Shown piece by piece: positions 4,816 to 47,673 of a stretch of 64,000 nt of DNA (within the stretch, counting starts at the first letter, position 1; the number at the start of each line of letters is the position of its first letter). The stretch covers positions 1 through 64,000 of the forward strand of contig NZ_JAPNOZ010000010.1 in NCBI RefSeq assembly GCF_029955155.1, in the 5' to 3' direction. The notes under the pieces are model-generated. The model was not told the DNA's origin. It ran no database searches and was given only the letters and a program-made list of their open reading frames with translations. The stretch comes from Psychrobacillus sp. NEAU-3TGS (lineage in GTDB: Bacteria; Bacillota; Bacilli; Bacillales_A; Planococcaceae). Position numbers and translations under genes: made by a program.

Positions 4816-5745
4816 ATGAAAAAAAAATTCGTCACAACTACATTATCAGTCGTAATCGGTTTTAGTGCATTAGGGGTTTCTCCTACTGTTATTCATCCAA
4901 TAGAGGCTTCAGCTGCAGCCGTTAATAGTCAGCATAACCAACAAGCAGTAGAAGCAAAGGCCAATCAATTAATTCAAACAGCTAAGAGTTTAATAGGCAA
5001 AGCTACTTATAGTAATACGGTGTACAAGGATACATATCCTTACAAATTTTCATGTGCAAGTTTTCTAATGTACATTTTCGAGAAAAATGGAGTAGACCTT
5101 GGAACGTATAATGAAGATTATATGATGAAACAAGGAACAGCCGTTTCCAGAACTCAACTACAAAAAGGGGATCTTCTTTTCTTTGATAGCAGAGGTGGTA
5201 AAGTGCCAAATCACGTTGCCATGTATATAGGGAACAATAAAGTCATTCACATGGCAGACCCAAAACAAAATATTGTTATTTCAGACTTAAACAGTAAGCC
5301 ATATTATAAAGATAACTATATTACAGCAAGAAGAGTATTACCGACTCTACTTCCTGCAAACCCTGCAACTAAAGGGGATAACATCGTTGCAAAAACGATC
5401 AGTTTAAAGAGTAAGGTGAAGATGGGTAATGTCAATAATGCTGCAGCATTACGTTTCACTGCTACTGGATTTGTGGATTATGTATACAAAGCAAATGGTG
5501 TTAAATTAGGGACAACTAATATGAAAGAACTTATGAAAAAAGGGACAACCGTATCTCGCTCCAACTTAAAGAAAGGTGATTTAATTTTCTTTAACAGTAC
5601 TAAAGGATCTAAAACACCAACTATGGTAGCAATTTACGCGGGTGATCATCGTATCATTATTCCAAATTCAAAGGGAGTTATAACAAGAGTGCTATTTGTT
5701 GATTATTATAATCAGCATTATATAACAGCAAAACGCGTTCTTTAA
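4816..5745 (+). CDS. Secreted NlpC/P60 peptidase with a second, degenerate domain
   Basis: 309 aa. A Sec signal peptide (residues 1 to about 34, ending ASA) marks it as an exported cell-wall hydrolase. The first NlpC/P60 domain (about 50-176) keeps the catalytic set: Cys80 (FSCASF), His133 (NHVAMYIG) and His145 (VIHM). The second (about 192-309) aligns throughout, but the equivalent positions are Ala216, Met270 and Ile282, so it should be inactive and may bind wall peptides. NlpC/P60 enzymes usually cut D-gamma-glutamyl to meso-DAP bonds in stem peptides. No LysM or SH3 domain is present. The start has AGGAGGG seven bases upstream. A WalR-type box lies upstream and a strong terminator follows. 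Confidence 0.88.
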   Translation: MKKKFVTTTLSVVIGFSALGVSPTVIHPIEASAAAVNSQHNQQAVEAKANQLIQTAKSLIGKATYSNTVYKDTYPYKFSCASFLMYIFEKNGVDLGTYNEDYMMKQGTAVSRTQLQKGDLLFFDSRGGKVPNHVAMYIGNNKVIHMADPKQNIVISDLNSKPYYKDNYITARRVLPTLLPANPATKGDNIVAKTISLKSKVKMGNVNNAAALRFTATGFVDYVYKANGVKLGTTNMKELMKKGTTVSRSNLKKGDLIFFNSTKGSKTPTMVAIYAGDHRIIIPNSKGVITRVLFVDYYNQHYITAKRVL

Positions 5746-5876: not shown

Positions 5877-7271
5877 TTATTTTCTTTTATTTTCTTTCAA
5901 GCTATTGGCAAATTCAATCATAGATCTGCTCGACATAGGACCTTTTATCAATAATATGGAATTTTCGTCAAGGATAGGCTCTAATACATCAATAACACCT
6001 TTGACATCTTTAAAGATATGGACTGTGGCCTCTGTTCCATCTTTCTTTGCTTGGTTTGCTATATCTTCTGCTTTGCTCCCTATTGTGATAAGTGTATGAA
6101 TGTTTCTTTTTGCAACCATACTTCCAATTTCCCGATGATATTTCTTTTCAAAGTTTCCTAATCGCTTAATATCGCCGAGTACAAGGATGACCTTTTTCCC
6201 CTGCCCAATAGAATCTAGCACCTTTAATGCAGCTTCGACAGATGTAGGATTATTTGTCCAAGTATCATCTATAATTGTACTTCCACCTAGTCCATCTGAA
6301 AACTCTAAGTGTCTTGTCATATTTTTATAGGTCGCTAATTGGGAAATGGCTTCATTTATATCCATCCCCATTTCGTTTACAGCTGCGATTGCTGCGAGCG
6401 CGTTATATACTTGATGTTCACCATATCCTGGTATAAATGCATTATATTTTTTATTAGAAATATGAATTTGAAAATTCATTCCATTATTTGCAAATTTTAT
6501 ATTGGATGCTCTAAAATGAGACTTCTCACTTACTCCAAAATAAATTATTTTTCCTTTAAATGATTGTAAAGGAACTTTTTTTGAATTGGCATCATCGGCA
6601 TTTAGTATTAATGTGCCGTTTTTCTTTATACCATCCACTATCTCTGACTTCGCTTTTATATATCCTTCCAGATTTCCACAACCATCTAAATGATGAACTC
6701 CGATATTTGTAATAATTCCGATTGTCGGCTGATAAATATTGCACTGATGTTTTATATTGCCGGTGTTACCCAATCCAAGCTCAAAAACAGCTGCATTTGT
6801 GTTTTCAGCAATACCCATCAAATAAGGTAAAGATTGACGTGGTTCATTTTTGCTGCTAATGGATGCTTGCACATTCCATCTTTTACTTAAAATATGTTTG
6901 ATCATTTCCTTCGTTGTAGTTTTACCACATGTCCCTGTTATTGCAACTACTGGTATTTGAAATAGATTTCTATAGTAGTCCATAAATTTCCAATACGCTT
7001 GTACGAGACTTCTTACTCTTATAACGGTTGTATCCGATAGAGCATTTTTCAATTCTGAGGAAGGCTTATCTGAAATCACAAGAGAAGGTCCCTTATTATT
7101 AATTTCCTGCCAATTAATAGAATCACTCCTGCTTACAAACATTAGCGAATTTCGTTTTGTTAGTTCATGCCGATTATAGTAGATAGCATTACTTACATTC
7201 CAAAGTTCGGAACCACTTATTAGTTCCCCTTGTAATAAATTTCGGATTTCTTTCACGCGTAAAGGTTTCAT
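5877..7271 (-). CDS. MurF-like ATP-dependent Mur ligase, paralog 1
   Basis: 464 aa from ATG 7271, which has GGAGGG five to ten bases upstream; a longer frame to 7373 lacks a ribosome binding site. Mur-ligase order: small N-terminal domain (1 to about 100), central ATPase with P-loop ITGTCGKTTTKE (111-122), FELGLGNTGNI, ITNIGVHHLDGCGNLE, then a C-terminal domain with DDTWTNNP and VLVLGDIKRLG. MurF joins D-Ala-D-Ala to UDP-MurNAc-tripeptide, but housekeeping murF normally sits beside ddl. Here it sits with a close paralog and ATP-grasp ligases, so another acid-amine ligation is more likely. A CATANNNTA box lies 20 bases upstream. Family confident, substrate unknown. Confidence 0.82.
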   Translation of the reverse strand: MKPLRVKEIRNLLQGELISGSELWNVSNAIYYNRHELTKRNSLMFVSRSDSINWQEINNKGPSLVISDKPSSELKNALSDTTVIRVRSLVQAYWKFMDYYRNLFQIPVVAITGTCGKTTTKEMIKHILSKRWNVQASISSKNEPRQSLPYLMGIAENTNAAVFELGLGNTGNIKHQCNIYQPTIGIITNIGVHHLDGCGNLEGYIKAKSEIVDGIKKNGTLILNADDANSKKVPLQSFKGKIIYFGVSEKSHFRASNIKFANNGMNFQIHISNKKYNAFIPGYGEHQVYNALAAIAAVNEMGMDINEAISQLATYKNMTRHLEFSDGLGGSTIIDDTWTNNPTSVEAALKVLDSIGQGKKVILVLGDIKRLGNFEKKYHREIGSMVAKRNIHTLITIGSKAEDIANQAKKDGTEATVHIFKDVKGVIDVLEPILDENSILLIKGPMSSRSMIEFANSLKENKRK

Positions 7272-7290
7272 AGTACCCTCCTTCCCTCTG

Positions 7291-7299
7291 TATAGTATG
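7291..7299 (-). promoter_or_regulatory. Sigma-K-like -10 element
   Basis: On the minus strand this reads CATACTATA, a perfect match to CATANNNTA, the -10 of mother-cell sigma-K promoters. The -35 position has AAT instead of the AC core. The predicted leader would be only about 13 bases. It is taken seriously mainly because similar boxes precede two neighbouring genes of the same cluster. Confidence 0.4.
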
Positions 7300-7415
7300 A
7301 AATCAGTTTTTAGATGATTAGGTATGAAATGTGCATAGTGTTTGTCCATCTTTTTAAATTTATTTATCACCAATATTTCAGAACAGTATTATTAGTAGCT
7401 TGGTGCAGTAATGAA

Positions 7416-8795
7416 TTATTTCTTCTTCCTCAATAATGCAGCTAACTCAATTATAGGTTGGCTGTACATATCTCCCTTAATCAGAACAATTGTATTGGAG
7501 TCTACAATGTTATTTAATAGATTTAAAACGAGGACTTCATTCCTAAATGTGTAGACCGGTGAAGTTAAACCTCTTTTTACAGCATGGTCTGCTATTATGC
7601 TCGCATGCTCTCCTATCGTAATGAGGACATCCACTCCATTTTGATAAATTAAATCTCCTGCCTGTTCATGAATAATATAACCCCATGAACCTAAATCAGT
7701 AATTGTCCCTATGATTGCTACCTTCTTTTTTCCTTTGCCAATTTCATTTAATACTTTTAATGCTGCTTCTAAAGAGGTTGTTGTTATACTCCATGTATCA
7801 TCTATAATTACAGAGTCATTTATACCATCCACCACTTGCAGTTGCTTATTGAACTTCCGAAATGTTTTTAATAGAAAAGCAGCTTCCGGGATAGTTACTC
7901 CCATTTCATAAACAGCCGCAATAGCTGCAAGCGCATTGTAGACTTGATGAACCCCCAGCCCAGGTACATATACTTGATAATTTCTCTTCTTGTGCCTAAC
8001 ACTGAATTCCATACCGTCTTGACAGTACTGAATATTACGAGCTCGAAAATGGCAAGATCTATGAGTCCCAACTTTTATAATTTTCCCTTTAAAGCTACTC
8101 ATATTAATCTTGCTTGTATTGCTATCCTCCGCATTTATTATTAATATACCCGCCGGATTAACAATTTGTAACATCTCCCCTTTTGCCTCAATATAGGCTT
8201 CTAGCGTTTTACAATAATTTAGGTGATGTGCCCCGATATTCGTAATAATCCCTATTGTAGGTTTGAAATATTCTCCTGCTTTTAATACATCCCCTGGTGA
8301 ACCAACAGCCGTTTCAAAAATAGCCGCATCCGTTTCTTCATCTATGCTTAAAAGATACTGCAAATTTGCCGTTCTAGAATTACTAGTAAGACTTGTAGCT
8401 GTAACTATCCTATCTGCCGAAAGAATATGCTTGATCATTTCTTTTGTTGTTGTTTTCCCAGAGGTTCCTGTTATGGCTACCACAGGGATATGAAATAGAC
8501 TGCGATAGTAGTGAACAAATTTCCAATATGCTTCGTCGGCATTCGTTACTTGGATGACAGTTACATTCTCAGGAATTTCATCTTTATTATATTTCCACTC
8601 TGTTGCAAGTACTAAAGGGAAAAACTTTTTAAGGCTTCTCCAGTCGATAATTCTTTTATCTGTAAAAAGTATGGTATTTTGATTTTTTATTTGTTTTAAA
8701 CGGTATGCTCCATATTTTACTAGCACTTCATCAGAACCTTGCACCAACTCACCAGAGATGATTGCTCTTATATTGCCGACTGTATGGGATTTCAT
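7416..8795 (-). CDS. MurF-like ATP-dependent Mur ligase, paralog 2
   Basis: 459 aa from ATG 8795. An in-frame GTG at 8807 lies only one base after the AAAGGAG, too close to use, so ATG is preferred. The protein is collinear with its neighbour at 5877: P-loop ITGTSGKTTTKE (108-119), FETAVGSPGDV, ITNIGAHHLNYCKTLE, DDTWSITTTSLEAALKVL, VAIIGTITDLGSWG. The two share long identical stretches (for example TTTKEMIKHIL and VYNALAAIAAV), so they arose by tandem duplication. They have diverged in the presumed substrate-contact loops. A 144-base gap separates them, with a sigma-K-like box before each, so each may have its own promoter. Likely a cytoplasmic amide ligase; substrate unknown. Confidence 0.82.
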   Translation of the reverse strand: MKSHTVGNIRAIISGELVQGSDEVLVKYGAYRLKQIKNQNTILFTDKRIIDWRSLKKFFPLVLATEWKYNKDEIPENVTVIQVTNADEAYWKFVHYYRSLFHIPVVAITGTSGKTTTKEMIKHILSADRIVTATSLTSNSRTANLQYLLSIDEETDAAIFETAVGSPGDVLKAGEYFKPTIGIITNIGAHHLNYCKTLEAYIEAKGEMLQIVNPAGILIINAEDSNTSKINMSSFKGKIIKVGTHRSCHFRARNIQYCQDGMEFSVRHKKRNYQVYVPGLGVHQVYNALAAIAAVYEMGVTIPEAAFLLKTFRKFNKQLQVVDGINDSVIIDDTWSITTTSLEAALKVLNEIGKGKKKVAIIGTITDLGSWGYIIHEQAGDLIYQNGVDVLITIGEHASIIADHAVKRGLTSPVYTFRNEVLVLNLLNNIVDSNTIVLIKGDMYSQPIIELAALLRKKK

Positions 8796-8821
8796 TAGCT
8801 TATTCACACTCCTTTCCTCTA

Positions 8822-8830
8822 TATAATATG
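8822..8830 (-). promoter_or_regulatory. Sigma-K-like -10 element
   Basis: The minus strand reads CATATTATA, a perfect CATANNNTA. It lies 27 bases upstream of the ATG of the MurF-like gene ending at 7416 and just before its ribosome binding site. No good AC -35 at the expected distance, so this is tentative. Confidence 0.4.
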
Positions 8831-8958
8831 TTTTTAAACGGAAGTTGACTGGATAAATGGAACATAATTGCGTGATACATAACTATGCCAAAGCTAGAAC
8901 ATGTCATAAATATAGAAAGAAACATATTAATGAAAATTTTGAGAAGGGAGTGAGCCGT

Positions 8959-10179
8959 TTGAAAGCAATTATTTTTATCAGCACAAACAAATCCGGATCT
9001 AGCAGGGAAGCGATTAAAGCAGCCGGAGATTTAGGATACTTTACCATCCTTTTCACAAATAACGAGAAGCAAATCCAACAAAGACAGGAATATACAGACG
9101 TCCACAAAATGGTTTTTGTAAACACATACGAGCTAGACGATATGAGAGAAGAAATTTTCAAGTTACAAAAAGTTGGTGTCGATATAAAAATCATCGTTAG
9201 TTTTGTTGATCCTTTTGTTCATACCGCTTCTATCCTTTGTGATGAATTTTGTCACAATTATGTTCTGTCTAAAGCCATTGAAATAATGGAAAATAAAGAG
9301 GAGACACGGTCGGTTTTAAAAGATCAGCCCTATACCCCTAAATTTTTCTTGATCAACCCAGGCGATTCAATTCCTATAGAAACGATATGTGAACAGTTTG
9401 ATTTTCCTATTATTATAAAATCACCCAAATCCACCGGATCTAAAGACGTATTGTTAGCCGAAGGAAAAGAACAACTAAAAAAACATATTGAAAATCTTCT
9501 AAGTAAGAATCCAGATACCACTATAATGATAGAAGAATATATAGAAGGTGATCAATATTTGGTAGAAGTAATCGTTCACAAACATAAACCACGTATTGTT
9601 GGAATTCTTGAACAAGAAATTACAAAGAACAAGCGATTTATCATTACAGGTTATGGTGTGCTTGCAAATGTTCCTTTAACGATTAGAAAAGGAATTGAAA
9701 ATGTTCTGCTATCCATTATTCAAGAGCTCAATATTGAAAATGGCGCTTTACATTTGGAAATCCGTTTAGCTAAGAATGGTTGGAAACTCATCGAGATTAA
9801 TCCAAGAATTTCCGGAGGTGCCATGAACAAAATGATTCAAGCAGCATTCGGAATAAATTTAGTAGAAGAGACGCTTAAATTATATTTAGGAAAAAGTCCT
9901 GCTCTATTACCGAAATTTAAGAAGTTTGTTTTTACCAAATATGTTATTGCCACAAAGAAAGGAATACTAGCTAAAGTAACTGGTAAAGCGAGGGCTAAAA
10001 AGTCTCCGGGAGTCGTAGAGGTTTACGTGAAGCCTAAAAAAGGAACTCTTTTAACGCCACCATTATCCATGGGACATCGATATGCTTATGTAATTGCTGT
10101 TGGTAGTAGTTTAGAAGAAGCCAAAAAACTCGCAAATACTGCAGCAGGCGAAATTACTTTCCATTTAGAAGAGGAGTAA
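8959..10179 (+). CDS. ATP-grasp carboxylate-amine ligase
   Basis: 406 aa from TTG 8959, which has GGGAG seven bases upstream. The frame is open back to 8857 but that extension has no ribosome binding site. An N-terminal Rossmann-like pre-ATP-grasp domain (KAIIFISTNKSGSSREA) precedes the ATP-grasp fold (about 115-310). There FPIIIKSPKSTGSKDV forms the nucleotide loop, MIEEYIEGDQYLVEV is the central strand and LIEINPRISGGAMN supplies the Mg-binding Glu/Asn. The family joins an acyl-phosphate to an amine (compare BacD-type amino-acid ligases). It is the only plus-strand gene of the cluster, divergent from a MurF-like gene. It closely resembles the frameshifted ATP-grasp gene at 13433-14655. Substrates cannot be read from sequence. 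Confidence 0.82.
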   Translation: MKAIIFISTNKSGSSREAIKAAGDLGYFTILFTNNEKQIQQRQEYTDVHKMVFVNTYELDDMREEIFKLQKVGVDIKIIVSFVDPFVHTASILCDEFCHNYVLSKAIEIMENKEETRSVLKDQPYTPKFFLINPGDSIPIETICEQFDFPIIIKSPKSTGSKDVLLAEGKEQLKKHIENLLSKNPDTTIMIEEYIEGDQYLVEVIVHKHKPRIVGILEQEITKNKRFIITGYGVLANVPLTIRKGIENVLLSIIQELNIENGALHLEIRLAKNGWKLIEINPRISGGAMNKMIQAAFGINLVEETLKLYLGKSPALLPKFKKFVFTKYVIATKKGILAKVTGKARAKKSPGVVEVYVKPKKGTLLTPPLSMGHRYAYVIAVGSSLEEAKKLANTAAGEITFHLEEE

Positions 10180-10185
10180 AACTAA

Positions 10186-10211
10186 GAACACCTTACAGGT
10201 GCTCTTTTTTT
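10186..10211 (+). terminator. Rho-independent terminator
   Basis: GAACACCT (10186-10193), loop TAC, AGGTGCTC (10197-10204), one mismatch, then a run of T. It lies six bases after the ATP-grasp stop codon. Confidence 0.8.
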
Positions 10212-10289
10212 AATTTTATAAACAAAAGTGTAGTTCCTATCTCTGTCCGATGTCGCAAGGTGGAAATATAAATAGAGTAACGAATATTA

Positions 10290-10469
10290 TAGGAATAATA
10301 CGTGATAAGACAGAGCTATTAAGTGTCTGTTGGGATTTCCGCTACAGGGTGGACGCTTTCCGCGGGCACGGCTTCAATCTCCTCGTCGCTCACCTGGCGG
10401 AAAGCGTCCATATAGTAACGAAAATCACAGCTGTCACTAGTCAACACACTACGTCGCACTTTCTCTATA
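10290..10469. repeat. Dispersed inverted-repeat element, short form (copy A)
   Basis: A 180-base member of the repeat family described in the findings. Core GGCTTCAATCTCCTCG and the 14-base perfect palindrome arms TGGACGCTTTCCGC (10350-10363) and GCGGAAAGCGTCCA (10397-10410) are clear. Outer ends are degenerate versions of TAGGGAAACTGC. It looks like a full paired element whose middle has been deleted, leaving a compact hairpin. Open frames in it are not genes. Confidence 0.7.
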
Positions 10470-10543
10470 CCACGCATCATAAAAAAAGTCATATCTTATT
10501 TTACTTAAAAAGTTATTAGCTTGTTTTTCTTAGCCCAAATACA

Positions 10544-10591
10544 AGAAACCTGAATAACGCTCCTTTAGTCAGAGTGTTATTCAGGTTTCTT
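10544..10591 (-). terminator. Terminator of the fusion ligase gene
   Basis: About 19 paired bases (10544-10562 with 10572-10591, sequence AGAAACCTGAATAACGCTC and its near complement) lie directly after the stop codon of the minus-strand gene at 10597. The T tract is modest on both strands, so it may work bidirectionally. Confidence 0.75.
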
Positions 10592-10596
10592 TAAGA

Positions 10597-12765
10597 TTAT
10601 TCTTTAAACGTTTGATCCAAAAACTTGACTGTATCAAACATATTCGTTTTACTTGCTCCTTTGATCAAAATCGTATCGTCTTTCTCCACAATCTCTGCCA
10701 ATAATTCATGTAATTGTTCCTTATTTAGAAAATGATAAACATTTTTAGAGGGAAATCCTTTTGCCTTCGCTTGAGCTCCAATTTCTTCCGTTCTAAACCC
10801 ATAGGTGATTAATATATCAATGCCTTTTTCCTGAACGTAATCGCCTACTTTCCGATATTCTTGTTCTCTTAACTCACCTAGCTCTCTCATTTGACCAATA
10901 ATTGCTATTTTTCGTTGTTTCCCTATATTAGCTAGTACATCCAACGCAGCACGTACTCCTTGTGGATGAGAGTGGACAGTGTCATCAATTACTGTAATGT
11001 TGTCCCGACAATTATATATTGTTAATCTTCTAGGCGGTTTTCTAAAAATCAACCCGGCTTTAATTTCCATTGGGGTGAACCCTAAATAGTCAGCCACAGC
11101 AATCGCATTTAAAGCATTGTATACATGATGCTCGCCTAAAATAGGGATAAATAGTTCAATTTCTTGCCGCTGCAGTCTCATTTTGAAACTCATACCATTC
11201 TCTTTATATTGAATCTTATAGGCCCTGTAGTTAGCTGGTGACTTTGTACTGACCGTCATTATTTTCCCTTTAAATTGCTGAGTCTCCAAATACTTAGAGT
11301 TTTCATCATCTTTGTTTACGACGAGGATACCTTCTTGATCCATCCCGTGAATTAGTTCAGATTTTGCATGAGCAACTCCTCTAATATCACTATCAAAGTT
11401 TCCGACATGTGCAAGACCGATATTGGTCACTATGCTAATGTTTGGTCTAATAATGCTACAATGTTCCGTGATAACCCCTGGATAAGCCATACCATATTCT
11501 AATACTACCGCCTCGTGAGCATCATTAATTTCTGCAGCATGTTTTTTGGTATGCTCCGTTGTATTCCAATAATCTTTGGATTCAAAAATGTTCCACCTCT
11601 TAGACAATATCGATGCAAGGAATGCCTTAGTCGTTGTTTTACCAGCGCTTCCCGTTATCGCAATGATTGGTATTTCTCCTTTTTCTTCGATCTTTTTCCT
11701 CTTTACTTTGCTAATTTCCTTTGTTATTTTCGTTTGATTTTCTGCTATAAATTTTGCATATTGAATGGAATGGATTACTACATCTAGTTCCAAATAAAAA
11801 GCAGGAGGACAGCCTGGACGCCAGTTTACTTCGTAAATCCAAATTTTTAAATTTTCATCTAGTCCAACGTCAATTCCTATTTCATCGATAACTTCTCCAT
11901 ATTTCACCATTTGTATTTCATCTAAATGATTAGCTAACGACAACGAAAAGTGCTCAAGCATCCGTCTAATATCAAATGCTTCTTCCTTAAATTCCTGTAG
12001 CAAAAATGGATCTAAATAATTTGTGAAACCACCATTATTAATATTGGGAATGATAGATCCGTTTGGAGCGACTCGTGGATAAATAGTAGTAATCACCCAC
12101 TTGCCTTCCCCATTTTTTTGTACATGAAGCCTAAAATCATACACTTGACCAGATTTATTGACCGATTGTATATATGGTTGAACTATAAAAGTGCCAGACG
12201 ATAGCTTATCCTCCAAAAATACATTCAGCTGTTCCCTTGTATAAAATACATTATCTGAGTCCTTCCTCACTTCATAACCCTTTTCTATTTCAGAAATAAA
12301 AAAGATTCCTTTCCCCTTTCTTCCATCAATCGGTTTAAGGACAACTTTATGAAAAGAAGAGATGAACTTGTAAAAATTCTCTACATTCTTTACCACTTCA
12401 GAGGGGATTAAGTAGCTTGCAAATTCCTTGGCCTCCATTAGGCGCTCAGTGATATTCCACTTATTACCTATTGAGTTTGTAGTAAATGGGATTTCACTTT
12501 TCAATTTATCAATGATTTCTTTTGACTTCGCTAATTTTTCAGGGCTCCCTGCATTATAAATAACATCTGGAAAAGGCATGATTTTCTCTTTCCAGCTTCC
12601 ATTTTCATAAACTTGACCTCGAATAGATCGATTCACAAAATTTACTACACCTGGTGAAAAGTAAAAAAAGTTGACCCCCTCCGCTTTAGCGACTGCAGCA
12701 TATGCATATGACTTGATGACGGATTTTGGATCTTTACGATGGTGCAGCATTCCTATTGTTGTCAT
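10597..12765 (-). CDS. YheC/YheD-type ATP-grasp fused to a Mur ligase
   Basis: 722 aa. Residues 1 to about 350 resemble YheC/YheD, ATP-grasp proteins known from Bacillus spore coats: opening GMLHHRKDP, nucleotide-binding VVLKPIDGRKGKGIFF (141-156), IVQPYIQ, and a C-terminal EIGIDVGLDENLKIWIYEVN metal/ATP site with WRPG. After a Lys-rich linker (about 348-363), residues 365-722 form a Mur-ligase ATPase and C-terminal domain: P-loop ITGSAGKTTTK (370-380), ITNIGLAHVGNFDS, DDTVHSHPQG and IIGQMRELGE. The N-terminal UDP-sugar domain of normal Mur enzymes is absent, replaced by the ATP-grasp. The order resembles cyanophycin synthetase. A strong AAAAGGAG precedes ATG. Probably makes two successive amide bonds; substrates unknown. 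Confidence 0.85.
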   Translation of the reverse strand: MTTIGMLHHRKDPKSVIKSYAYAAVAKAEGVNFFYFSPGVVNFVNRSIRGQVYENGSWKEKIMPFPDVIYNAGSPEKLAKSKEIIDKLKSEIPFTTNSIGNKWNITERLMEAKEFASYLIPSEVVKNVENFYKFISSFHKVVLKPIDGRKGKGIFFISEIEKGYEVRKDSDNVFYTREQLNVFLEDKLSSGTFIVQPYIQSVNKSGQVYDFRLHVQKNGEGKWVITTIYPRVAPNGSIIPNINNGGFTNYLDPFLLQEFKEEAFDIRRMLEHFSLSLANHLDEIQMVKYGEVIDEIGIDVGLDENLKIWIYEVNWRPGCPPAFYLELDVVIHSIQYAKFIAENQTKITKEISKVKRKKIEEKGEIPIIAITGSAGKTTTKAFLASILSKRWNIFESKDYWNTTEHTKKHAAEINDAHEAVVLEYGMAYPGVITEHCSIIRPNISIVTNIGLAHVGNFDSDIRGVAHAKSELIHGMDQEGILVVNKDDENSKYLETQQFKGKIMTVSTKSPANYRAYKIQYKENGMSFKMRLQRQEIELFIPILGEHHVYNALNAIAVADYLGFTPMEIKAGLIFRKPPRRLTIYNCRDNITVIDDTVHSHPQGVRAALDVLANIGKQRKIAIIGQMRELGELREQEYRKVGDYVQEKGIDILITYGFRTEEIGAQAKAKGFPSKNVYHFLNKEQLHELLAEIVEKDDTILIKGASKTNMFDTVKFLDQTFKE

Positions 12766-12869
12766 TTAATATTCTCCTTTTAACATTTGTGTGATTATAT
12801 TTGTATTAAATTCATCCATCTTGCATTGGATACGGACAAACGTTCAGTTTTTTTAGTAAAAATAAAAAA

Positions 12870-12890
12870 CACCCCAAGACTTGTAGGGTG
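12870..12890 (-). terminator. Rho-independent terminator
   Basis: On the minus strand CACCCTA...TTGGGGTG is followed by a long T-rich tract (12855-12869). It lies just after the CotZ-like gene stop and separates it from the fusion ligase gene. Confidence 0.8.
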
Positions 12891-12901
12891 AAGAGGTGCC
12901 A

Positions 12902-13345
12902 TTACCATTTCGGCTCAATAATTATTTTTCTTGTTAACAATTCGGTCTCCAATAGTTGTATGGCACAAATACGTGACAAATCAACATTCTTACATATAGA
13001 TGTTTTTTCTAATCTAACCAAATCACAAAAAGAATTAGAGTAATTCCCCTCAATATCAAGAGGACGTAGTAACGAAATTGTTGTACAACATCTTTCTTTA
13101 TCGATGGACTCTATTCTAAAATAAATTGTTTCAAAACACTCTTCCCTACTGCTAAAGCTTAATGGGTCCCCTTTTTTGGTTATTAAGAGTAAGGGAATCG
13201 TATCGGTACCTGCTATTTTGGCAAGTAATCGACCGAAAAATTTCGTTTGGGAATTATTTAATAAATCCTGGAGCAATTTCAATTCACAGAGTGCATCACA
13301 TATACATTGGTTACTTTTTATTTCGCTGCTCAATTGATTTTTCAA
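12902..13345 (-). CDS. CotY/CotZ-family spore coat protein
   Basis: 147 aa, the usual CotZ length. The family pattern is collinear: CICDALCELKLLQDLL at the N-terminus, a small-residue segment with DTIPLLLITKKGDPL, FETIYFRIESIDKERCCTTISLLRPL, and FCDLVRLEKTSICKNVDLSRICAIQ near the end. Nine cysteines, including CxC and CC, fit the disulfide-linked two-dimensional lattices these crust/exosporium proteins form. The start is TTG 13345 or the TTG four codons later; GGAAGGGGG lies one base before the first and 12 before the second, so the start is uncertain. Its place between the fusion ligase and an ATP-grasp gene, all on one strand, ties this cluster to sporulation. Confidence 0.85.
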   Translation of the reverse strand: MKNQLSSEIKSNQCICDALCELKLLQDLLNNSQTKFFGRLLAKIAGTDTIPLLLITKKGDPLSFSSREECFETIYFRIESIDKERCCTTISLLRPLDIEGNYSNSFCDLVRLEKTSICKNVDLSRICAIQLLETELLTRKIIIEPKW

Positions 13346-13432
13346 CCCCCTTCCTACTCTTAGTACTTATAATATTACGGCTTGAGAAGGTTACACGGGT
13401 AAACAGACTAACTTATTGAACCACTGTTGCTT

Positions 13433-14655
13433 TCAAAAAGGTTCTAGATAAAATTTAATTTCTTTTGCAGCTTCTAAGGCAATCTCTTCTGCTTGTTCCG
13501 CTGTTTCTGAAACAGCAATGACACATGCATAGCGATTTCCCATTGAATATGGGCTCGTTATAATTCTTCCTTCCAGAGGTTTAATGTGAACATGCCTCAC
13601 ACCTTCATGCATTAAAGCCTGTTCTTTTCCGGAAATTTTGAGTAGTTTTCCACGGGAACCTATTGTTAAATATTTGGCATACACTTGCTTTTTCTTCTTT
13701 TCTAGTAAAATAGGCTCCTCACCTAAATATATTTTTAAAATTTGTTCTAACAGATTAATCCCGGTTCCTTCTTCGATAATTCTATTCATCTCTCCTCCAG
13801 CCATTCTCGGATTTATTTCTATTAGTTTCCATTCACCACTAACAAGTTTCATCTCCATATGACAGGATCCATTCTCAAGACCTATTTCTTCTATAATTTT
13901 GGAAATGCCAGCATATAAACTGCGATATTCATCCATATCGACTTTCCCAGGAAAACTATAACCAGTAACGATAAATCTGCCATTGTATAACACTTCCTGC
14001 TCCACTAATCCTAGGAACTTAATTTCATTGTTATAAACCAAAATTTCAATAAGATACTGTGGTCCTTGTAAAAATTCTTCTATTAAAAATGGGTAATGTG
14101 GGTGATTTTTTTTAGTAACGTTAAAGCATTTACTAGCTTTTCTATCGTTTCAACAAGTAGTACATCCTTTGAACCATTTGATATTGGGGGTTTTATAATA
14201 AAGGGAAAGAGGGATTTATATTCTTTTTCAAACTTTTCAAGGGAATCATCTGACCGAAAAATTGTATAAAAGGGGGTAGTCGGAAAGTTCTTTAGTTTTT
14301 CCCTTATCGCTATTTTGTTTTCCATTAATATTAAGGAATCGATGGACGTTTCAGCTAGCTCAAAAAACTTTGATATCCTAGCTGCATAAGAAACATATGG
14401 ATCAATTAAACTGACGCATGCGCAAATATGCTTCCCTTGTTCCATCAGCCTCGTTATTTCTTCCACCATTTGCTGTTCGTCTAATAAATCTTCCATTAGC
14501 ACAAACTGATCCACTTCCGAGAAATCAGAATTACTCGTGATGCGCTTAGTCTTGTCCGTGCAAAGAACGACACAATATCCCATTTCTTTTGCTATCTTCA
14601 GGGCTTCCTTACTTGTTCCATATTTATAACTTCCGATAAATACAATTGTTTTCAT
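13433..14655 (-). pseudogene. ATP-grasp carboxylate-amine ligase, frameshift in an A8 run
   Basis: Two frames (14083-14667 and 13433-14041) make one protein of about 407 aa, collinear with the 406-aa ATP-grasp gene at 8959. The junction is T8 on the plus strand (14106-14113). One more base restores LLKKNHPHYPFLIEEFLQGPQYLIEILVYN. The N-terminal part has KTIVFIGSYKYGTSKEA and FPFIIKPPISNGSKDV; the C-terminal part has LIEINPRMAGGEMN. Start ATG 14655 has AGGTGG eight bases upstream; the GTG at 14667 overlaps that site. A CATACTTTA box lies 39 bases upstream. The lesion could be a sequencing error, real loss, or a site for slippage on eight A residues. Confidence 0.8.
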
Positions 14656-14693
14656 AGGAATAGCCACCTATTCATTTATACACTTTTTCTCTA

Positions 14694-14702
14694 TAAAGTA
14701 TG
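14694..14702 (-). promoter_or_regulatory. Sigma-K-like -10 element
   Basis: The minus strand reads CATACTTTA, a perfect CATANNNTA, 39 bases before the start of the frameshifted ATP-grasp gene. No clear AC at the -35 distance. An overlapping CATACATA also resembles a sigma-E -10, so a mother-cell promoter of either type is possible. Confidence 0.4.
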
Positions 14703-29315: not shown

Positions 29316-29930
29316 ATGGGCATTAATTTGGTAAAAGGTCAAAAAATAGATTTAACTAAAGGGAGATCTTCCTTATCAAGCGTTATGGTTGGTTTAGGTT
29401 GGGACCCTGTTGAAAAGAAAAAAAGTGGTGGCTTTTTAGGAGGTCTACTAGGTGGCGGTGCTAGCGGTGCTGAAGTAGATTGTGATGCTTCTGTATTACT
29501 GCTAGATGAGAACGGCAAATTGCAATCTAAAAAAAACCTAGTGTATTTTGGCAACAAAGCAAGCCAAGATGGTAGTGTCGTTCACTCAGGCGATAATTTA
29601 ACTGGAGCTGGAGAAGGCGATGACGAGGTTATCAATGTTAACTTAAACGCGATTTCATCTTCCGTACATAGGTTGGTATTCGTAGTTAACATTTATCAAG
29701 CGAAACAAAGAAAGCAAGATTTCGGTCTTATTCAAAATGCCTTCATCCGACTGGTAGATAATGGAACGAAAGAAGAGTTAGTACATTATAACTTATCTGA
29801 AAGCTATGCTGGAAAAACCTCTCTTTTCCCAGGTGAGTTATATCGTCATGGTTCTGAATGGAAATTCTCCGCTGTCGGTGAAGGCACATCTGATTTAGAC
29901 ATAGGTTCTATTGCAAACAAATACTTATAA
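29316..29930 (+). CDS. TerD-family stress protein (YceC-like)
   Basis: 204 aa. Starts [16 protein letters not shown], the TerD signature, then VGLGWDP, an unusual Gly-rich insert (KKKSGGFLGGLLGGGASG, about 31-50), and the acidic metal-loop region DCDASVLLLDENGK and GDNLTGAGEGDDEVINVNL. TerD proteins bind calcium through Asp clusters and confer tellurite, phage and general stress resistance by an unresolved mechanism. One loop is altered here (AEVDCDAS instead of NDFDLDAS). ATG has GGAGG at the right distance. First gene of the operon, 14 bases before the next TerD gene. Confidence 0.88.
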   Translation: MGINLVKGQKIDLTKGRSSLSSVMVGLGWDPVEKKKSGGFLGGLLGGGASGAEVDCDASVLLLDENGKLQSKKNLVYFGNKASQDGSVVHSGDNLTGAGEGDDEVINVNLNAISSSVHRLVFVVNIYQAKQRKQDFGLIQNAFIRLVDNGTKEELVHYNLSESYAGKTSLFPGELYRHGSEWKFSAVGEGTSDLDIGSIANKYL

Positions 29931-29944
29931 GGAGTTGTTTATGA

Positions 29945-30520
29945 ATGGGCATTAATTTATCAAAAGGACAAAAGGTAGATTTAACAAAAACAAACCCAGG
30001 TTTAGTGAATGTAACAGTAGGATTAGGTTGGGATACAAATAAATATGACGGTGGGAACGATTTTGACTTAGACTCATCTGTATTCTTACTTGGAAGCAAT
30101 GGAAAATGCTCTTCTGAAAGTGACTTCATTTTCTATAATAATACAACGGGTGCTGGTGGTGCTGTTGTCCATACAGGAGACAATCGTACTGGAGACGGAG
30201 ATGGGGACGATGAGCAAGTAAATATTAACCTATCAACTGTGCCGGCTTCCATTGAAAAAATTGCATTTAGTATTACTATTCACGATGCAGAAGCACGTGG
30301 GCAAAACTTTGGTCAAGTAAACAATTCATATGCACGAATTTTAAATGCTGATAGTGGAGAAGAATTGATCCGTTATGACCTAGGAGAAGATTTCTCTATT
30401 GAAACTGCAGTAGTAGTAGGAGAATTGTATCGTCATAACGGCGAATGGAAATTCAATGCCATTGGTAGTGGATACCAAGGTGGTTTAGCAGCTTTAGTTA
30501 CTGACTTCGGTCTTAACTAA
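29945..30520 (+). CDS. TerD-family stress protein (YceD-like)
   Basis: 191 aa, canonical TerD throughout: [89 protein letters not shown]. The Asp-rich loops for calcium are intact. Cytoplasmic. It follows YceC-like TerD by 14 bases with AAGGAG upstream. A terminator after it may limit read-through to the biosynthetic genes. Closely similar to the third TerD at 37765. Confidence 0.92.
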
Positions 30521-30532
30521 AACAGCACAAGC

Positions 30533-30562
30533 AAAAAGCAAGGGTCTTTTTCCTTGCTTTTT
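30533..30562 (+). terminator. Intra-operon terminator
   Basis: AAAAAGCAAGG (30533-30543) pairs with CCTTGCTTTTT (30552-30562). It lies between the second TerD gene and the CitE-like gene, and probably lowers expression of the downstream module relative to the TerD genes. Confidence 0.8.
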
Positions 30563-30638
30563 ATTTTACAAAAAGTAAAACATAAGTGGAATATGGGTGA
30601 ACCTAACAGCGCCTTCTTCATTTTTAGGAGTGAAATTC

Positions 30639-31798
30639 ATGAAGCATTTTCGAGGAGTGCATGACAATGAATTACAACATTTTTTTCATGTACCGCCTAA
30701 AGATTTTTCGAAAGATCTAGATAAAAAAAATTAGGCATTGCACTAGGAGCTACCTTATATATTCCAGGTTCCATGCCGGACATCAAATCAAAGTTAACAA
30801 ACAATAATTTACGAAATTTAACAAACGCTATTATTTGCTTAGAAGACTCGATTGCAGATTCTGAGCTTATCTTGGCAGAACATAACGTCATCCATGAGCT
30901 CCGCCTAATAGACCAAGGTTTTGAAAAAGGAGTAATTTCAGAACATGAACTCCCCCTTCTATTCCTTCGCATTAGAAACGTAGAGCAGCTTCAAAAACTA
31001 GCAGAACAATTAGGTAGCACCATTGGCCTTTTTACTGGGATTGTTTTCCCCAAATGTACAACTTCGAATGCCGAGAATTTTTTAGCCTGCTTGCAAGACA
31101 TTAATCGATATTATTCAACCTATTTATACGCATTGCCTATTTTAGAAACAAAAGAAATAATTTATACAGAGTTGAGAGAACAAGAGCTTACTAGCTTGTA
31201 CAAGTTATTCAAGGAATATGAAGATACTATTTTAACCATCCGTGTAGGGGCAACCGACTTTACAAGCCTCTTTGGTTTAAGACGCCCTGGCAACCGAACA
31301 GTATATGATATAAAGCTTGTTTCAGATTGTTTAACTGCTGTTTTAAACCAATTCACAAGGCAAGAGGATAACTTTATCGTCTCTGGTCCTGTTTATGATT
31401 ATTTTAGCTCGCAAAACCATGCGATAACTACTGATGACTTAAATGGATTTGAAGCTGTTCTATGGAACGAAGTACAACTAGATATTGACAATGGTTTTTT
31501 CGGGAAAACCTGTATTCATCCTTCTCAAATTGACATTGTGAATGCTGCTTACATAGTACCAAAAGAAATATACGATGATGCACGATTAATCGTCGGAAAT
31601 AAAGACGAGACGAACGGAGTTTTACGAAGTTCGGCGAGAAATAAAATGAATGAAGTGAAGCCTCATTATAACTGGGCTTTAAAAATACTAACACAAGCAG
31701 AAATATATGGGGTGCTTAAAGAAAATGTTACATCACTCGACTTCCTCCAACATATCAAAAACGTACAACTTACACGGAGACTTAAAATTAACAATTGA
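30639..31798 (+). pseudogene. CitE-like (HpcH/HpaI) aldolase of the Ter module, frameshift in A8
   Basis: ATG 30639 (AGGAG eight bases upstream) opens MKHFRGVHDNELQHFFHVPPKD and runs into A8 at 30723-30730. One more A restores DKKKLGIALGATLYIPGSMPDI and a continuous protein of about 386 aa. Features include MVICLEDSI-like NAIICLEDSIADSE, PLLFLRIRN, GIVFPKCT, LPILETKEIIY, TILTIRVGATDF (metal/substrate strand) and GKTCIHPSQI. This CitE-like lyase group is a fixed member of Ter-linked biosynthetic operons, where it is predicted to build a nucleoside-like metabolite. It overlaps the next gene by about 74 bases. The single-base lesion is probably not real. Confidence 0.8.
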
Positions 31799-33080
31799 AG
31801 TAAAAAACAATCCAAATAACTTTTCACCTGATGCCCTTTTTGAAATGGGGGTAAGAATAAACAAAAAAAGAAACTTTTTATTCGTAAGCCGCTTACTCGG
31901 AAAGCATTTGGCAGTAGACCCCACCATCTCTCTTGCAACTGGGTCTATTTTAGCTTCTATGCTTCTTGAGAATGAAGGTCAAAAACCTCTTCCACAGTTA
32001 GATGAAATTGTGGAAATGATTAATTCAGGTATTCCAGATCGAGCATTAAGCGCAAAATCATTGGCATACAAAGCAAAATTACCAACCAAAACTGTTTTTA
32101 TTGGTTTTGCTGAAACTGCTACTGGCTTAGGACATGCGGTATTCAACCACTTTTATGATGCAACATATATCCATACAACGAGAGAAGAAATAATCAATTT
32201 AAAGCCTTCCTTTTATTTTGAAGAAGAGCATTCTCATGCTACCTCACACCGCGTCTATGCACCTGAAGAAATATTAATGGAAGCGGAAACGATTGTCCTG
32301 GTGGATGATGAAATTACAACAGGCCTTACCGCCTCCAACCTTATCGCAGCATTAAGTAAATCATTTCCTGACAAACAATATAAAGTTTTATCTATTTTAG
32401 ATTGGCGAAGTGACGATCAACGAAGTGAATTTAATCATGTGATGAAAGCTCGCGGTATATCAGCAGAAGTAATTTCTATTCTCTCTGGTCAGTTTTTATT
32501 GAGCAATGAAGCATCGATTGAAGAAAAAGAGCAGAGTTATCTTGAAGGCGGGAAGGAATTCGAACTATTTGCGGATAAATCATTAACGGCACCAGTCACT
32601 TCTTCTTATTATAGTGCACATGCTGCGTACAACAGTTTTACAGGCAGATTTGGTATAACCGCTGATCATCATGAAGAAATGGAAGAATGGATTCAAAATA
32701 TGTTTAATAAGCTCCCTTCCATAGATAGAAACAAATCTACACTCGTGATTGGTGTGGGAGAAAATATATATGTTCCATTAAGATTTGCTTTGGCTTTTGG
32801 CGAAAAAACGAAAGTACAAACAACGACAAGAAGCCCTATTTTCGCTAAAGATGAAAAATCCTATCCTATTAAACAAAAATGTAAATTCACTTTACCGGAC
32901 TCAATCGGAATCGATCAATATATATATAACCTAGCAGAAGTTGAAGCCGAACAAATCATTGTAATAGCAGAATCTGTGAAAGAAAAAACGAGCTGGTTTC
33001 CACTGCTTACACATCTAGAGAATTTTGCACCTGTTACATGGATATCCCTTACTATGCCATATGAAGAAGGAGGAGAATAA
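31725..33080 (+). CDS. Phosphoribosyltransferase with TRSP domain (Ter module)
   Basis: About 451 aa. ATG 31725 is preferred (GGGGTG ten bases upstream) over ATG 31707; both overlap the CitE-like gene. The N-terminal part (about 25-265) is an orotate-type PRTase: TKTVFIGFAETATGLGHAVF and the PRPP loop TIVLVDDEITTGLTASNL. The C-terminal part carries the visible TRSP motif (VQTTTRSPIF) that names the companion domain. In Ter-linked operons this PRTase_2/TRSP protein is predicted to handle a ribosylated base. The next gene's ribosome binding site (AAGGAGG) lies within its last codons, indicating coupled expression. Confidence 0.85.
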   Translation: MLHHSTSSNISKTYNLHGDLKLTIEVKNNPNNFSPDALFEMGVRINKKRNFLFVSRLLGKHLAVDPTISLATGSILASMLLENEGQKPLPQLDEIVEMINSGIPDRALSAKSLAYKAKLPTKTVFIGFAETATGLGHAVFNHFYDATYIHTTREEIINLKPSFYFEEEHSHATSHRVYAPEEILMEAETIVLVDDEITTGLTASNLIAALSKSFPDKQYKVLSILDWRSDDQRSEFNHVMKARGISAEVISILSGQFLLSNEASIEEKEQSYLEGGKEFELFADKSLTAPVTSSYYSAHAAYNSFTGRFGITADHHEEMEEWIQNMFNKLPSIDRNKSTLVIGVGENIYVPLRFALAFGEKTKVQTTTRSPIFAKDEKSYPIKQKCKFTLPDSIGIDQYIYNLAEVEAEQIIVIAESVKEKTSWFPLLTHLENFAPVTWISLTMPYEEGGE

Positions 33081-33081
33081 G

Positions 33082-34197: not shown

Positions 34198-35000
34198 CTA
34201 TCCTTTTTGCCAGTGATTTAGATCGTACACTTATCTATAGTAAAAACTCCAGAGGTGCCGAGGTCCAAGAAAAGGACCTTTCCCCTGTAGAATGGGTCGA
34301 TGAAAAACCAACTGCTTTTATGACCACAAAAGAAATTGAATACTTTCATAAACTTTCACCTACCATCACTTTTGTACCAGTTACTACAAGAACTGCGAGT
34401 CAATATAATCGGATTACAGGGATATTCAAACCATCTGAAAAACCAACCTATGCAATCGTTTCCAATGGAGCTGTTATTTTAGAAAATGGAAAACCTCTTA
34501 CGGAGTGGTCAGACAAAGTGAAAAAGCAACTCCAGCTAGATTGCACATCGATTGAACATGTAATGCCCCAGTTAGAGGCATATGCTAAAAAAGAGTTCGT
34601 TCTCCGCGTTTTACATGCAGAGTCTTGGTTTGTATATATGATTATTGATGAAAAAATGTTCTCAGTGGAAGAGCTTGAAAATCTTTCGCAAATTTTTTAT
34701 GAACAAGGTTTTACACTTTCTCATCAAGGCAGAAAATTGTATATTATGCCAAATTGTATTAATAAATCAACGGCACTTCAATTTGTGAAAGAACGAATAG
34801 AGGCTAAAACTGTTATTGCTGCAGGTGATTCCATGCTTGATTTTGATATGGTTATAAGTGCTGATCAAGGCTATATCCCCTCTCACGGGGAAGCAGTAAA
34901 ACAAAAGGAACTACTCCCTCCTCATGTTTTCGTTACAAACAATATCGGAGTACTTGCTGGGGAAGAAATAGTAAAAAAAGTATGTGAGTATTTGTTATAA
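34194..35000 (+). CDS. HAD-superfamily phosphatase of the Ter module
   Basis: 268 aa. HAD motif I is FASDLDRTLIYS (nucleophile Asp8, acid Asp10), motif II FVPVTTRTASQY, the cap Lys lies near INKSTALQFVKE, and motif IV is AAGDSMLDFDM. It should remove phosphate from a small metabolite, presumably the product of the PRTase/aldolase steps. The four-base ATGA overlap with the StiP-type gene shows translational coupling. The YceG-like gene follows after 24 bases. Confidence 0.88.
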   Translation: MTILFASDLDRTLIYSKNSRGAEVQEKDLSPVEWVDEKPTAFMTTKEIEYFHKLSPTITFVPVTTRTASQYNRITGIFKPSEKPTYAIVSNGAVILENGKPLTEWSDKVKKQLQLDCTSIEHVMPQLEAYAKKEFVLRVLHAESWFVYMIIDEKMFSVEELENLSQIFYEQGFTLSHQGRKLYIMPNCINKSTALQFVKERIEAKTVIAAGDSMLDFDMVISADQGYIPSHGEAVKQKELLPPHVFVTNNIGVLAGEEIVKKVCEYLL

Positions 35001-35024
35001 TAGTTGTGAATAGGGGGAGAACCC

Positions 35025-36637: not shown

Positions 36638-36655
36638 TATGAGGGGGAATAGAAA

Positions 36656-47661: not shown

Positions 47662-47673
47662 CGCTCTTCCTTC

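What the first reader, a model, noticed from the sequence alone, without database searches (positions are those of the whole stretch)
5877..14702. Candidate undescribed sporulation pathway of Mur-type and ATP-grasp ligases
Five amide-ligase genes (two MurF-like, one ATP-grasp/Mur fusion, two ATP-grasp) occur together with a CotY/CotZ-family coat gene, with none of the usual murF neighbours (ddl, division genes). Seen directly: intact P-loops and ATP-grasp metal sites, CATANNNTA boxes before three of the genes, and a CotZ-like neighbour. Known: YheC/YheD ATP-grasp proteins associate with Bacillus spore coats. Inference: a mother-cell pathway that builds or attaches a peptide-like or amino-acid polymer on the spore surface, or makes a spore-specific metabolite.
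Basis: partly seen in the sequence, partly recalled or inferred. Interest (0 to 1): 0.88.

Follow-up and report, generated by a model that had tools for sequence, protein, structure and literature searches.

The report
Sporulation-linked amide-ligase gene cluster
A conserved set of peptide-bond-making enzymes, seen in the genomes sampled only where a key spore-formation gene is also present, sits beside a spore-coat gene and probably builds an amino-acid polymer or tag for the spore surface; the product is unknown.

Summary
The window is Psychrobacillus. The genes are real: two MurF-like ligases, a YheC/D ATP-grasp–Mur fusion, two L-amino-acid-ligase-type ATP-grasps and a divergent CotZ paralogue. 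One ATP-grasp gene is frameshifted here but intact in two close relatives.

The cluster recurs: of 64 relatives with at least 22 kb of DNA, 42 carry all six core genes. In a 200-genome family sample the fusion is in 62 genomes, all with SpoIVA, and in none of the 50 without. CATANNNTA boxes are enriched before five of its gene families over 599 control genes, so mother-cell expression is likely but not shown.

The Mur domains keep catalytic residues but have lost, or degraded, the UDP-MurNAc-binding domain. Standalone relatives of the fusion's Mur half adjoin CapA-type genes in 13 of 25 loci. The hydrolase has tandem NlpC domains with one active copy, as in PgdS.

Best reading: a spore-envelope polyamide or peptide pathway working like poly-γ-glutamate or cyanophycin synthesis. 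Chemistry untested; ten paper searches showed no description.

The parts
4816..5745 (+). nlpC: secreted protein with two tandem NlpC/P60 domains; the first has the catalytic Cys/His motifs, the second does not. Conserved neighbour of mur1.
   Evidence: Pfam 6.4e-34; within 1.5 kb of mur1 in 53 of 57 loci; of 66 NlpC proteins of these loci (at least 50% identity and 280 aa) 34 have two and 32 three domains, the first with Cys and His motifs in 62 and Cys only in 4, later domains with neither; signal sequence read from the translation
5877..7271 (-). mur1: MurF-like amide ligase with a degenerate domain 1 (ORF listed to 7373; likely ATG at 7271)
   Evidence: catalytic residues kept, GNxNN-type motif of MurF replaced; clade with support 100/99
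7291..7299 (-). CATACTATA, sigma-E/sigma-K-type -10 box before mur1
7416..8807 (-). mur2: second MurF-like amide ligase (likely ATG at 8795); K for R at one position held to be invariant in Mur ligases (recalled)
8822..8830 (-). CATATTATA box before mur2
8959..10179 (+). ag1: ATP-grasp ligase of the L-amino-acid-ligase type (ORF from 8857; likely TTG 8959, 406 aa)
   Evidence: LAL_C2 9.9e-22, ATP-grasp_4 3.2e-18; 74 of 78 related loci
10597..12765 (-). fus: YheC/D ATP-grasp (res. 92-339) fused to MurF-like middle and C-terminal domains (370-704), no Mur domain 1; holds the only YheC/D domain found in this genome
   Evidence: AlphaFold mean pLDDT 87, pTM 0.63; fold matches MurF and, less well, cyanophycin synthetase
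12902..13345 (-). cotZ-like coat protein, a divergent paralogue; a stronger CotZ match lies elsewhere in the genome
   Evidence: PF10612 48 bits; other copy 152 bits on C4; a CotZ hit in 66 of 78 related loci, within 1.5 kb of the fusion in 59 of 74 (window counted)
13433..14041 (-). ag2, 3' part: second LAL-type ATP-grasp gene, separated from its 5' part by a frameshift
   Evidence: LAL_C2 1.9e-18
14083..14667 (-). ag2, 5' part
   Evidence: ATPgrasp_N 2.2e-4, below the curated cut-off; intact orthologue L006:8051-9334
14694..14702 (-). CATACTTTA box before ag2

Best explanation
A sporulation-linked, probably mother-cell-expressed set of ATP-dependent amide ligases that makes a non-ribosomal, amino-acid-based polymer (or oligopeptide) for the spore envelope. 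ag1/ag2 would join or prime amino acids, as L-amino acid ligases do. The YheC/D–Mur fusion would extend the chain with two active sites, one per half, as cyanophycin synthetase does. mur1 and mur2 would add further residues. The YheC/D half (YheD coats the B. subtilis spore) would place synthesis at the forespore surface beside the CotZ-like protein. The secreted tandem-NlpC hydrolase would trim or remove the product. Shown: gene set, conservation, promoter boxes, occurrence only in SpoIVA+ genomes of the samples, intact catalytic residues, loss or decay of the UDP-MurNAc-binding domain, CapA/NlpC neighbours of standalone relatives. Inferred: expression, substrates, product, location, and the division of labour.
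For: Neighbourhood: 42 of 64 long loci have all six core genes. Occurrence: 62 of 200 family genomes, all SpoIVA+, 0 of 50 SpoIVA-; at class level the Mur half is in 45 of 299 genomes, all among the 209 SpoIVA+. Promoters: of 69 loci with at least three of ag2, cotZ, ag1, mur2, mur1, 66 have at least one CATANNNTA and 47 at least two, against 52/599 control genes. CotZ hit in 66 of 78 loci. Catalytic residues kept. Domain 1 absent in the fusion and no PF01225 match in mur1/mur2, whereas the genome's own MurF matches it. Tree: the fusion's Mur half groups with the standalone ligases (100/97), MurF on its own long branch beside them. Standalone relatives adjoin CapA in 13 of 25 and an NlpC protein (25-35% identity to the window's) in 6 of 25 loci (two CapA confirmed by Pfam). 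The 66 NlpC proteins examined have 2-3 tandem domains with catalytic motifs only in the first; PgdS has three with one functional (PMC5880399 passages). Cyanophycin synthetase is matched across both halves. Split forms of the fusion occur as adjacent genes. On Priestia megaterium plasmids an ATP-grasp + YheC/D pair occurs, in one record among YjcZ, germination and SASP genes. YheD forms a shell around the B. subtilis spore, function unknown (PMC7911427 passages).
Against: No expression or chemical data. Six of 19 sampled genomes of the same genus lack the fusion though SpoIVA+, so it is dispensable for sporulation. nlpC and the orphan gene have no box above background (3/73 and 1/33) and the fusion only background (10/74, shuffles 13%), so co-expression is assumed for them. 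CapA is not in the fused cluster; this genome has one strong PGA_cap match, on another contig. At genus level the SpoIVA association is weak in the family (6/13 v 0/6, p=0.11) and modest in the class (25/101 v 0/17, p=0.02). The cyanophycin synthetase match superposes poorly as a whole (rmsd 25.6 Å, TM 0.38 by query length). In the tree MurF is sister to the fusion/standalone clade and mur1/mur2 lie outside both (99/95), with long-branch warnings. NlpC enzymes also cleave peptidoglycan, and the named solved relatives of this one are mostly wall hydrolases.
Confidence: 0.5

Rival explanations
1. Coat-protein modification: the ligases attach peptides or amino acids to coat proteins (CotZ-like protein, the Cys-rich 147-aa orphan protein) rather than making a free polymer.
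For: CotZ hit in 66 of 78 and the orphan protein in 32 of 78 loci; the orphan family had 117 proteins at E <= 0.001 in a word-limited search of 5.8 billion, those with names being from these or related genera; the fusion scores 24.8 bits for the tubulin-tyrosine ligase family (cut-off 20.1), though no single stretch passes.
Against: The orphan protein is missing from most loci, this window included; Mur-type ligases acting on proteins are not known to me; no shared C-terminal tag motif was tested.
Confidence: 0.2
2. Sporulation-specific isozymes of peptidoglycan precursor synthesis (cortex), mur1/mur2 being spare MurF enzymes.
For: Closest named model is MurF (268, 236 and 264 bits) and the closest solved relatives or folds of mur1 and the fusion are MurF; a CapA-linked standalone relative even passes the MurF cut-off (293.4 bits); NlpC hydrolases act on peptidoglycan; the genome has two MurE-type proteins over cut-off.
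Against: mur1, mur2 and the fusion fall below the MurF cut-off of 288.6, lack or have eroded domain 1 and the GNxNN-type motif; the ATP-grasps are LAL-type, not Ddl, while true MurF+Ddl are elsewhere; CotZ and CapA are not cortex genes (recalled).
Confidence: 0.12
3. A small soluble spore metabolite (dipeptide, osmolyte, germination modulator or antibiotic) made during sporulation.
For: ag1/ag2 carry the L-amino-acid-ligase C-terminal domain and ag1 resembles dipeptide ligases; an EamA transporter gene flanks the cluster in the window and two close relatives; most Lysinibacillus loci have, upstream of cotZ, small multidrug-resistance-type proteins and an osmoprotectant-type ABC transporter (families 6 and 7, in 18 and 17 loci; named by eye).
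Against: No transporter family is shared across the genera except one of generic ABC ATPases (28 loci, the window's member about 30 kb away); the multi-domain hydrolase and CotZ fit a surface product better.
Confidence: 0.13
4. An ordinary vegetative cell-wall or storage cluster unrelated to sporulation.
For: Expression was not measured; nlpC lacks the sporulation-type box.
Against: Found only in SpoIVA+ genomes of the samples, boxes enriched several-fold before five gene families, CotZ member.
Confidence: 0.05

Closest known systems
Poly-γ-glutamate system (PgsB/CapB, CapC, CapA/PgsA, PgdS; gene set recalled)
   Same: Mur-type ligase without a UDP-sugar-binding domain (for PgsB recalled); standalone relatives next to CapA in 13 of 25 loci; a tandem NlpC/P60 hydrolase with one active domain (PgdS from PMC5880399 passages).
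   Different: Fused to an ATP-grasp domain, several ligases, CotZ neighbour, sporulation-type boxes; no CapA in the fused cluster; no PgsB model among the NCBIfam hits shown.
Cyanophycin synthetase CphA1
   Same: ATP-grasp followed by a Mur-type domain in one chain; matched across both (7wae, 809 columns, E 7.5e-21).
   Different: YheC/D-type ATP-grasp; overall superposition poor (rmsd 25.6 Å) and Mur half nearer MurF; only 71.7 bits against a cut-off of 850.
B. subtilis YheC/YheD spore proteins (PF14398)
   Same: Same ATP-grasp family (the PF14398 control search rang in B. subtilis); YheD coats the spore (PMC7911427 passages).
   Different: Fused to a Mur ligase and embedded in a ligase cluster.
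MurF
   Same: Middle and C-terminal domains, P-loop, carbamate-type Lys and catalytic Glu/His kept.
   Different: Domain 1 lost or degenerate, substrate motifs changed, below cut-off.
L-amino acid ligases (BacD, DdaF, BL00235)
   Same: ATP-grasp + LAL_C2 architecture of ag1/ag2; BL00235 structure matched by ag1 at 1.4e-8.
   Different: Far below the DdaF cut-off, and for ag2 the BacD cut-off.

Membership tests
MurF (TIGR01143) | Score over the curated cut-off, 288.6 bits | tested here: not met
   mur1 268.4, mur2 235.7, fusion 263.8; the genome's own MurF 426.3. A CapA-linked standalone relative does pass (293.4), so the cut-off alone does not decide.
MurF (TIGR01143) | UDP-MurNAc-binding domain 1 (PF01225) | tested here: not met
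   No PF01225 match in mur1, mur2 or fusion; own MurF matches at 2e-8
MurF (TIGR01143) | Adds D-Ala-D-Ala to UDP-MurNAc-tripeptide | not testable with these tools
   needs an enzyme assay
Cyanophycin synthetase (TIGR02068) | Score over the curated cut-off, 850 bits | tested here: not met
   fusion 71.7 bits, Mur part only
Cyanophycin synthetase (TIGR02068) | ATP-grasp + Mur-type ligase in one chain | tested here: met
Poly-γ-glutamate synthase | CapA/PgsA partner gene in the cluster | tested here: not met
   Not among the window's cluster genes; one strong PGA_cap match on contig 12. Met for 13 of 25 standalone relatives
Poly-γ-glutamate synthase | PgsB/CapB sequence membership | tested here: inconclusive
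   No PgsB model among the hits shown; whether NCBIfam holds one was not checked
PgdS-type hydrolase | Tandem NlpC/P60 domains, one catalytic | tested here: met
   two domains in the window, 2 or 3 in relatives; the active copy is the first, in PgdS the second
PgdS-type hydrolase | Cleaves poly-γ-glutamate | not testable with these tools
   needs an assay; sequence comparison with PgdS itself was not made
YheC/D ATP-grasp (PF14398) | Score over the gathering cut-off, 26.8 bits | tested here: met
   204.8 bits
L-amino acid ligase | ATP-grasp + LAL_C2 domains over cut-off | tested here: met
   ag1: LAL_C2 77.4 bits, ATP-grasp_4 66.3 bits
CotZ/CotY coat protein (PF10612) | Score over the gathering cut-off, 24 bits | tested here: met
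   48 bits; below the NCBIfam CotZ_rel cut-off of 90 (33.6)
σE/σK-controlled gene set | Expression dependent on σE or σK | not testable with these tools
   only -10 boxes seen; -35 elements weak: σK-like full sites 14/41 for ag2, 13/56 for mur1, 1/60 for mur2

The most novel reading that the evidence does not exclude
A further class of ribosome-independent polyamide, specific to endospores: a YheC/D–Mur synthetase with two active sites makes an amino-acid copolymer on the forespore surface, anchored to CotZ-type or Cys-rich orphan coat proteins and removed by a PgdS-like hydrolase. This would also give the YheC/YheD coat proteins, of unknown function, an enzymatic role.
Probability: 0.3. Interest if true: 0.87.

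Novelty: new variant of a known kind. Interest (0 to 1): 0.7.

Why it matters
Spore coats are regarded mainly as layered proteins and polysaccharides (general knowledge). A conserved ligase pathway would add a new kind of spore-surface material and a function for the YheC/D family, whose B. subtilis member YheD coats the spore with no known role. The cluster names exact genes, hosts and a hydrolase, so the question is directly testable by deletion, spore chemistry and enzyme assay. It could also yield new amide-ligase enzymes for making polyamides.

Tried and rejected
Rejected: 'spare MurF' (below cut-off, domain 1 lost); 'mobile island' (the plasmid search listed only matches to the YheC/D half, in 16 Priestia records of which the ten best were shown, none covering 80% of the fusion; chromosomal mobility was not tested). 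Other sigma factors: strict patterns for σA, σF, σG and σH gave nothing convincing; nlpC shows a weak σF- and σH-like excess, 11/73 and 8/73. Led nowhere: PDB fold search of the orphan 147-aa protein (model pLDDT 91; no match at E <= 0.001); box enrichment before standalone Mur genes is weak (5/26 against 7% shuffled). Literature (ten searches answered): no listed paper appeared to describe this cluster, judged from titles, abstract starts and term counts; lists were capped. I read passages of PMC7911427, PMC3533761 and PMC5880399, no whole paper. The 2009 amidoligase survey by Iyer and colleagues (recalled) is not held and may mention YheC/D contexts.

Limits and dropped rows: the 78 loci were found by similarity to the fusion (80 best of 107), so its own count is by construction; species are not independent. 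CotZ and NlpC counts take any blastp hit at E <= 1e-4 in the locus; one search gives the stricter ones. In one search, mur1/mur2/ag1 orthologues needed over 50% identity, which put 8 further Mur and 12 further fusion-like ORFs in 'other'. The tree used 10 of 57 mur1, 10 of 61 mur2, 9 fusions (a tenth dropped out for want of the P-loop pattern), 25 standalone ligases, 17 'other' rows and 1 of 3 tried MurE/MurX rows; two rows named MurF (L143, L146) group with MurE and appear to be a wrongly picked neighbouring frame. In one search, L114 was counted as a miss because an antisense frame hid the gene. Genus labels were typed's titles; L014 (Bacillus sp. FJAT-22090) I placed with Psychrobacillus by similarity, and 12 loci were lumped as 'Bacillus sp.'.
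Full report
WHAT IS THERE. The window is from a Psychrobacillus genome: the best loci are P. lasiicapitis (97% to the fusion) and other Psychrobacillus. From left to right: a secreted NlpC/P60 protein (4816-5745 +), mur1 (5877-7271 -), mur2 (7416-8807 -), ag1 (8959-10179 +), the YheC/D–Mur fusion (10597-12765 -), a CotZ-like coat protein (12902-13345 -) and ag2 (13433-14667 -, in two pieces). Family assignments are from Pfam and NCBIfam. The canonical murF sits on another contig directly after a ddl gene; both pass curated cut-offs. A stronger CotZ match is elsewhere (152 against 44 bits), so the cluster copy is a divergent paralogue. The fusion holds the only YheC/D domain found in the genome.

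ag2 is broken here by a frameshift in an A-run; intact copies exist in two close relatives (427 and 411 aa). mur1, mur2 and ag1 have likely starts inside the listed ORFs. The NlpC gene belongs to the unit: it lies within 1.5 kb of mur1 in 53 of 57 loci with mur1.

CONSERVATION. A scan of one genome per species gave 107 stretches encoding a relative of the fusion; the best 80 were kept as 78 loci, in Psychrobacillus, Lysinibacillus, Sporosarcina, Neobacillus, Lederbergia, Domibacillus and others. Of these 78: ag1 74, fusion 73, nlpC 68, cotZ 66, mur2 60, mur1 56, extra YheC/D genes 45, ag2 41, orphan 147-aa protein 32. Of 64 loci of at least 22 kb, 42 have all six core genes (mur1, mur2, fusion, ag1, cotZ, nlpC), 51 at least five, 56 at least four. 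The loci were chosen by the fusion, so only the other genes are informative. Counting strictly, cotZ is within 1.5 kb of the fusion in 59 of 74 loci. The orphan protein had 117 relatives in a word-limited search of 5.8 billion proteins, those with names being from these or related genera. It has invariant cysteines, is predicted as an all-beta protein with no PDB match at E <= 0.001, and looks like a structural coat protein (inference).

SPORULATION LINK. In 200 genomes of the family, the fusion (E <= 1e-120) is in 62 and SpoIVA in 150; all 62 are SpoIVA+ and none of the 50 SpoIVA- genomes has the fusion. Six of 19 genomes of the window's genus lack it, so it is not essential. In 299 genomes of the class, a relative of the Mur half (E <= 1e-85) is in 45, all among the 209 SpoIVA+; the 14 carriers of the fusion or of either half found outside the family in a 398-genome class search were all SpoIVA+ too. 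By genus the contrast is 6 of 13 against 0 of 6 (p=0.11) and 25 of 101 against 0 of 17 (p=0.02). The box CATANNNTA lies within -200/+60 of the longest ORF start in ag2 26/41, mur2 33/60, mur1 27/56, cotZ 23/66, ag1 24/74, YheC/D 18/76, fusion 10/74, nlpC 3/73 and orphan 1/33, against 52/599 other genes of the same loci. In Lysinibacillus, where no ag2 was seen, the box is before cotZ (17/18), as expected if it drives the first gene of an ag2-cotZ-fusion unit. Of 69 loci with at least three of the five scored genes, 66 have at least one box. The -35 part is less clear, so σE or σK cannot be named.

ENZYMES. In the three Mur domains the P-loop, catalytic Glu, His and carbamate-type Lys are kept; the GNxNN-type motif of MurF is replaced, and mur2 has Lys for one Mur-invariant Arg (the list of Mur invariants is recalled). 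Domain 1 is absent in the fusion and unrecognisable by Pfam in mur1/mur2, while the genome's own MurF matches it. The fusion's ATP-grasp and Mur active-site residues are invariant in 46 sequences. The Mur-domain tree gives mur1 and mur2 as clades (100/99 each) and puts the fusion's Mur half inside a clade of standalone ligases (100/97); MurF is the sister of that clade on a long branch and mur1/mur2 lie outside both, a placement for which the program warns of long branches. The model of the fusion (pLDDT 87, pTM 0.63) matches MurF best; cyanophycin synthetase is matched across both halves but with a poor overall superposition (rmsd 25.6 Å), so the likeness is in architecture. Related halves also occur as separate adjacent genes (L082, L077, G292), which supports joint action.

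CLUES TO THE PRODUCT. Standalone relatives of the Mur half, all in SpoIVA+ genomes, adjoin a CapA (PGA_cap) gene in 13 of 25 loci and an NlpC gene in 6 of 25 (Pfam 8.6e-75 and 1.3e-69 for the two CapA tested). These resemble the partners of poly-γ-glutamate synthesis (recalled). The one standalone ligase tested against NCBIfam passes the MurF cut-off, which speaks for caution. Of the 66 NlpC proteins examined 34 have two and 32 three tandem domains; the Cys and His motifs are both in the first domain of 62, Cys alone in 4, and neither in any later domain. The passages of PMC5880399 that I read say that PgdS, the poly-γ-glutamate hydrolase, has three such repeats with only the second functional, and name one other protein with a duplicated domain. 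On Priestia megaterium plasmids an ATP-grasp and a YheC/D gene stand side by side in the three records opened, of 16, one of them in a stretch annotated with YjcZ, germination and small acid-soluble spore proteins.

HOW IT PROBABLY WORKS. Shown: the parts, their conservation, their restriction to SpoIVA+ genomes in the samples, the boxes, intact active sites, altered substrate sites. Inferred: expression in the mother cell, ag1/ag2 priming or supplying dipeptides, the fusion alternating two ligations, mur1/mur2 adding residues, deposition with CotZ-type proteins, trimming by NlpC. I put the polymer or oligopeptide reading at 0.5, protein tagging at 0.2, small metabolite 0.13, cortex precursors 0.12, non-sporulation 0.05.

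NOVELTY. Every component family but the orphan is known. The cluster, its sporulation link and the YheC/D–Mur fusion as a two-site ligase did not show in ten searches of an open-access library; subscription papers are missing and the 2009 amidoligase survey could not be read. I file it as a new variant of known amide-ligase systems.

Noticed in passing
G000:C4:930571-931914 (L084) and G000:C12:88328-89689 (L085): The genome has two MurE-type proteins over the MurE cut-off (392.8 and 298.5 bits); one could be a second, sporulation-related or amino-acid-specific MurE.
   Followed up: no
L075:15123-15566 and 32 further members: Orphan 147-aa protein family with invariant cysteines, found in ligase clusters of 32 of 78 loci; predicted all-beta (pLDDT 91), no PDB match at E <= 0.001.
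   Followed up: partly
L150, L151, L152 (Priestia megaterium plasmids): An ATP-grasp gene beside a YheC/YheD-family gene (47-48% to the fusion's first half) on plasmids; in L150 the region also carries spore germination, YjcZ and SASP genes.
   Followed up: partly
L102-L125, L130: Mur ligase without domain 1 next to CapA in 13 of 25 loci, NlpC in 6, in SpoIVA+ Bacilli: a possible second, more widespread form of the same pathway.
   Followed up: partly
window 29316-38343: Proteins that look like TerD domains, phosphoribosyltransferases and an HAD hydrolase, suggesting a tellurite/stress (ter) biosynthetic cluster; recognised by eye, not searched.
   Followed up: no
window 42950-58753: By eye, an amino-sugar and cell-wall recycling cluster (NagA/NagB-, MurQ-, AnmK- and NagZ-like proteins with a sugar ABC transporter); not searched.
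   Followed up: no
window 10240-10500: The stretch between ag1 and the fusion contains a GC-richer palindrome-like element that resembles dispersed intergenic repeats of Bacillales (impression, recalled).
   Followed up: no
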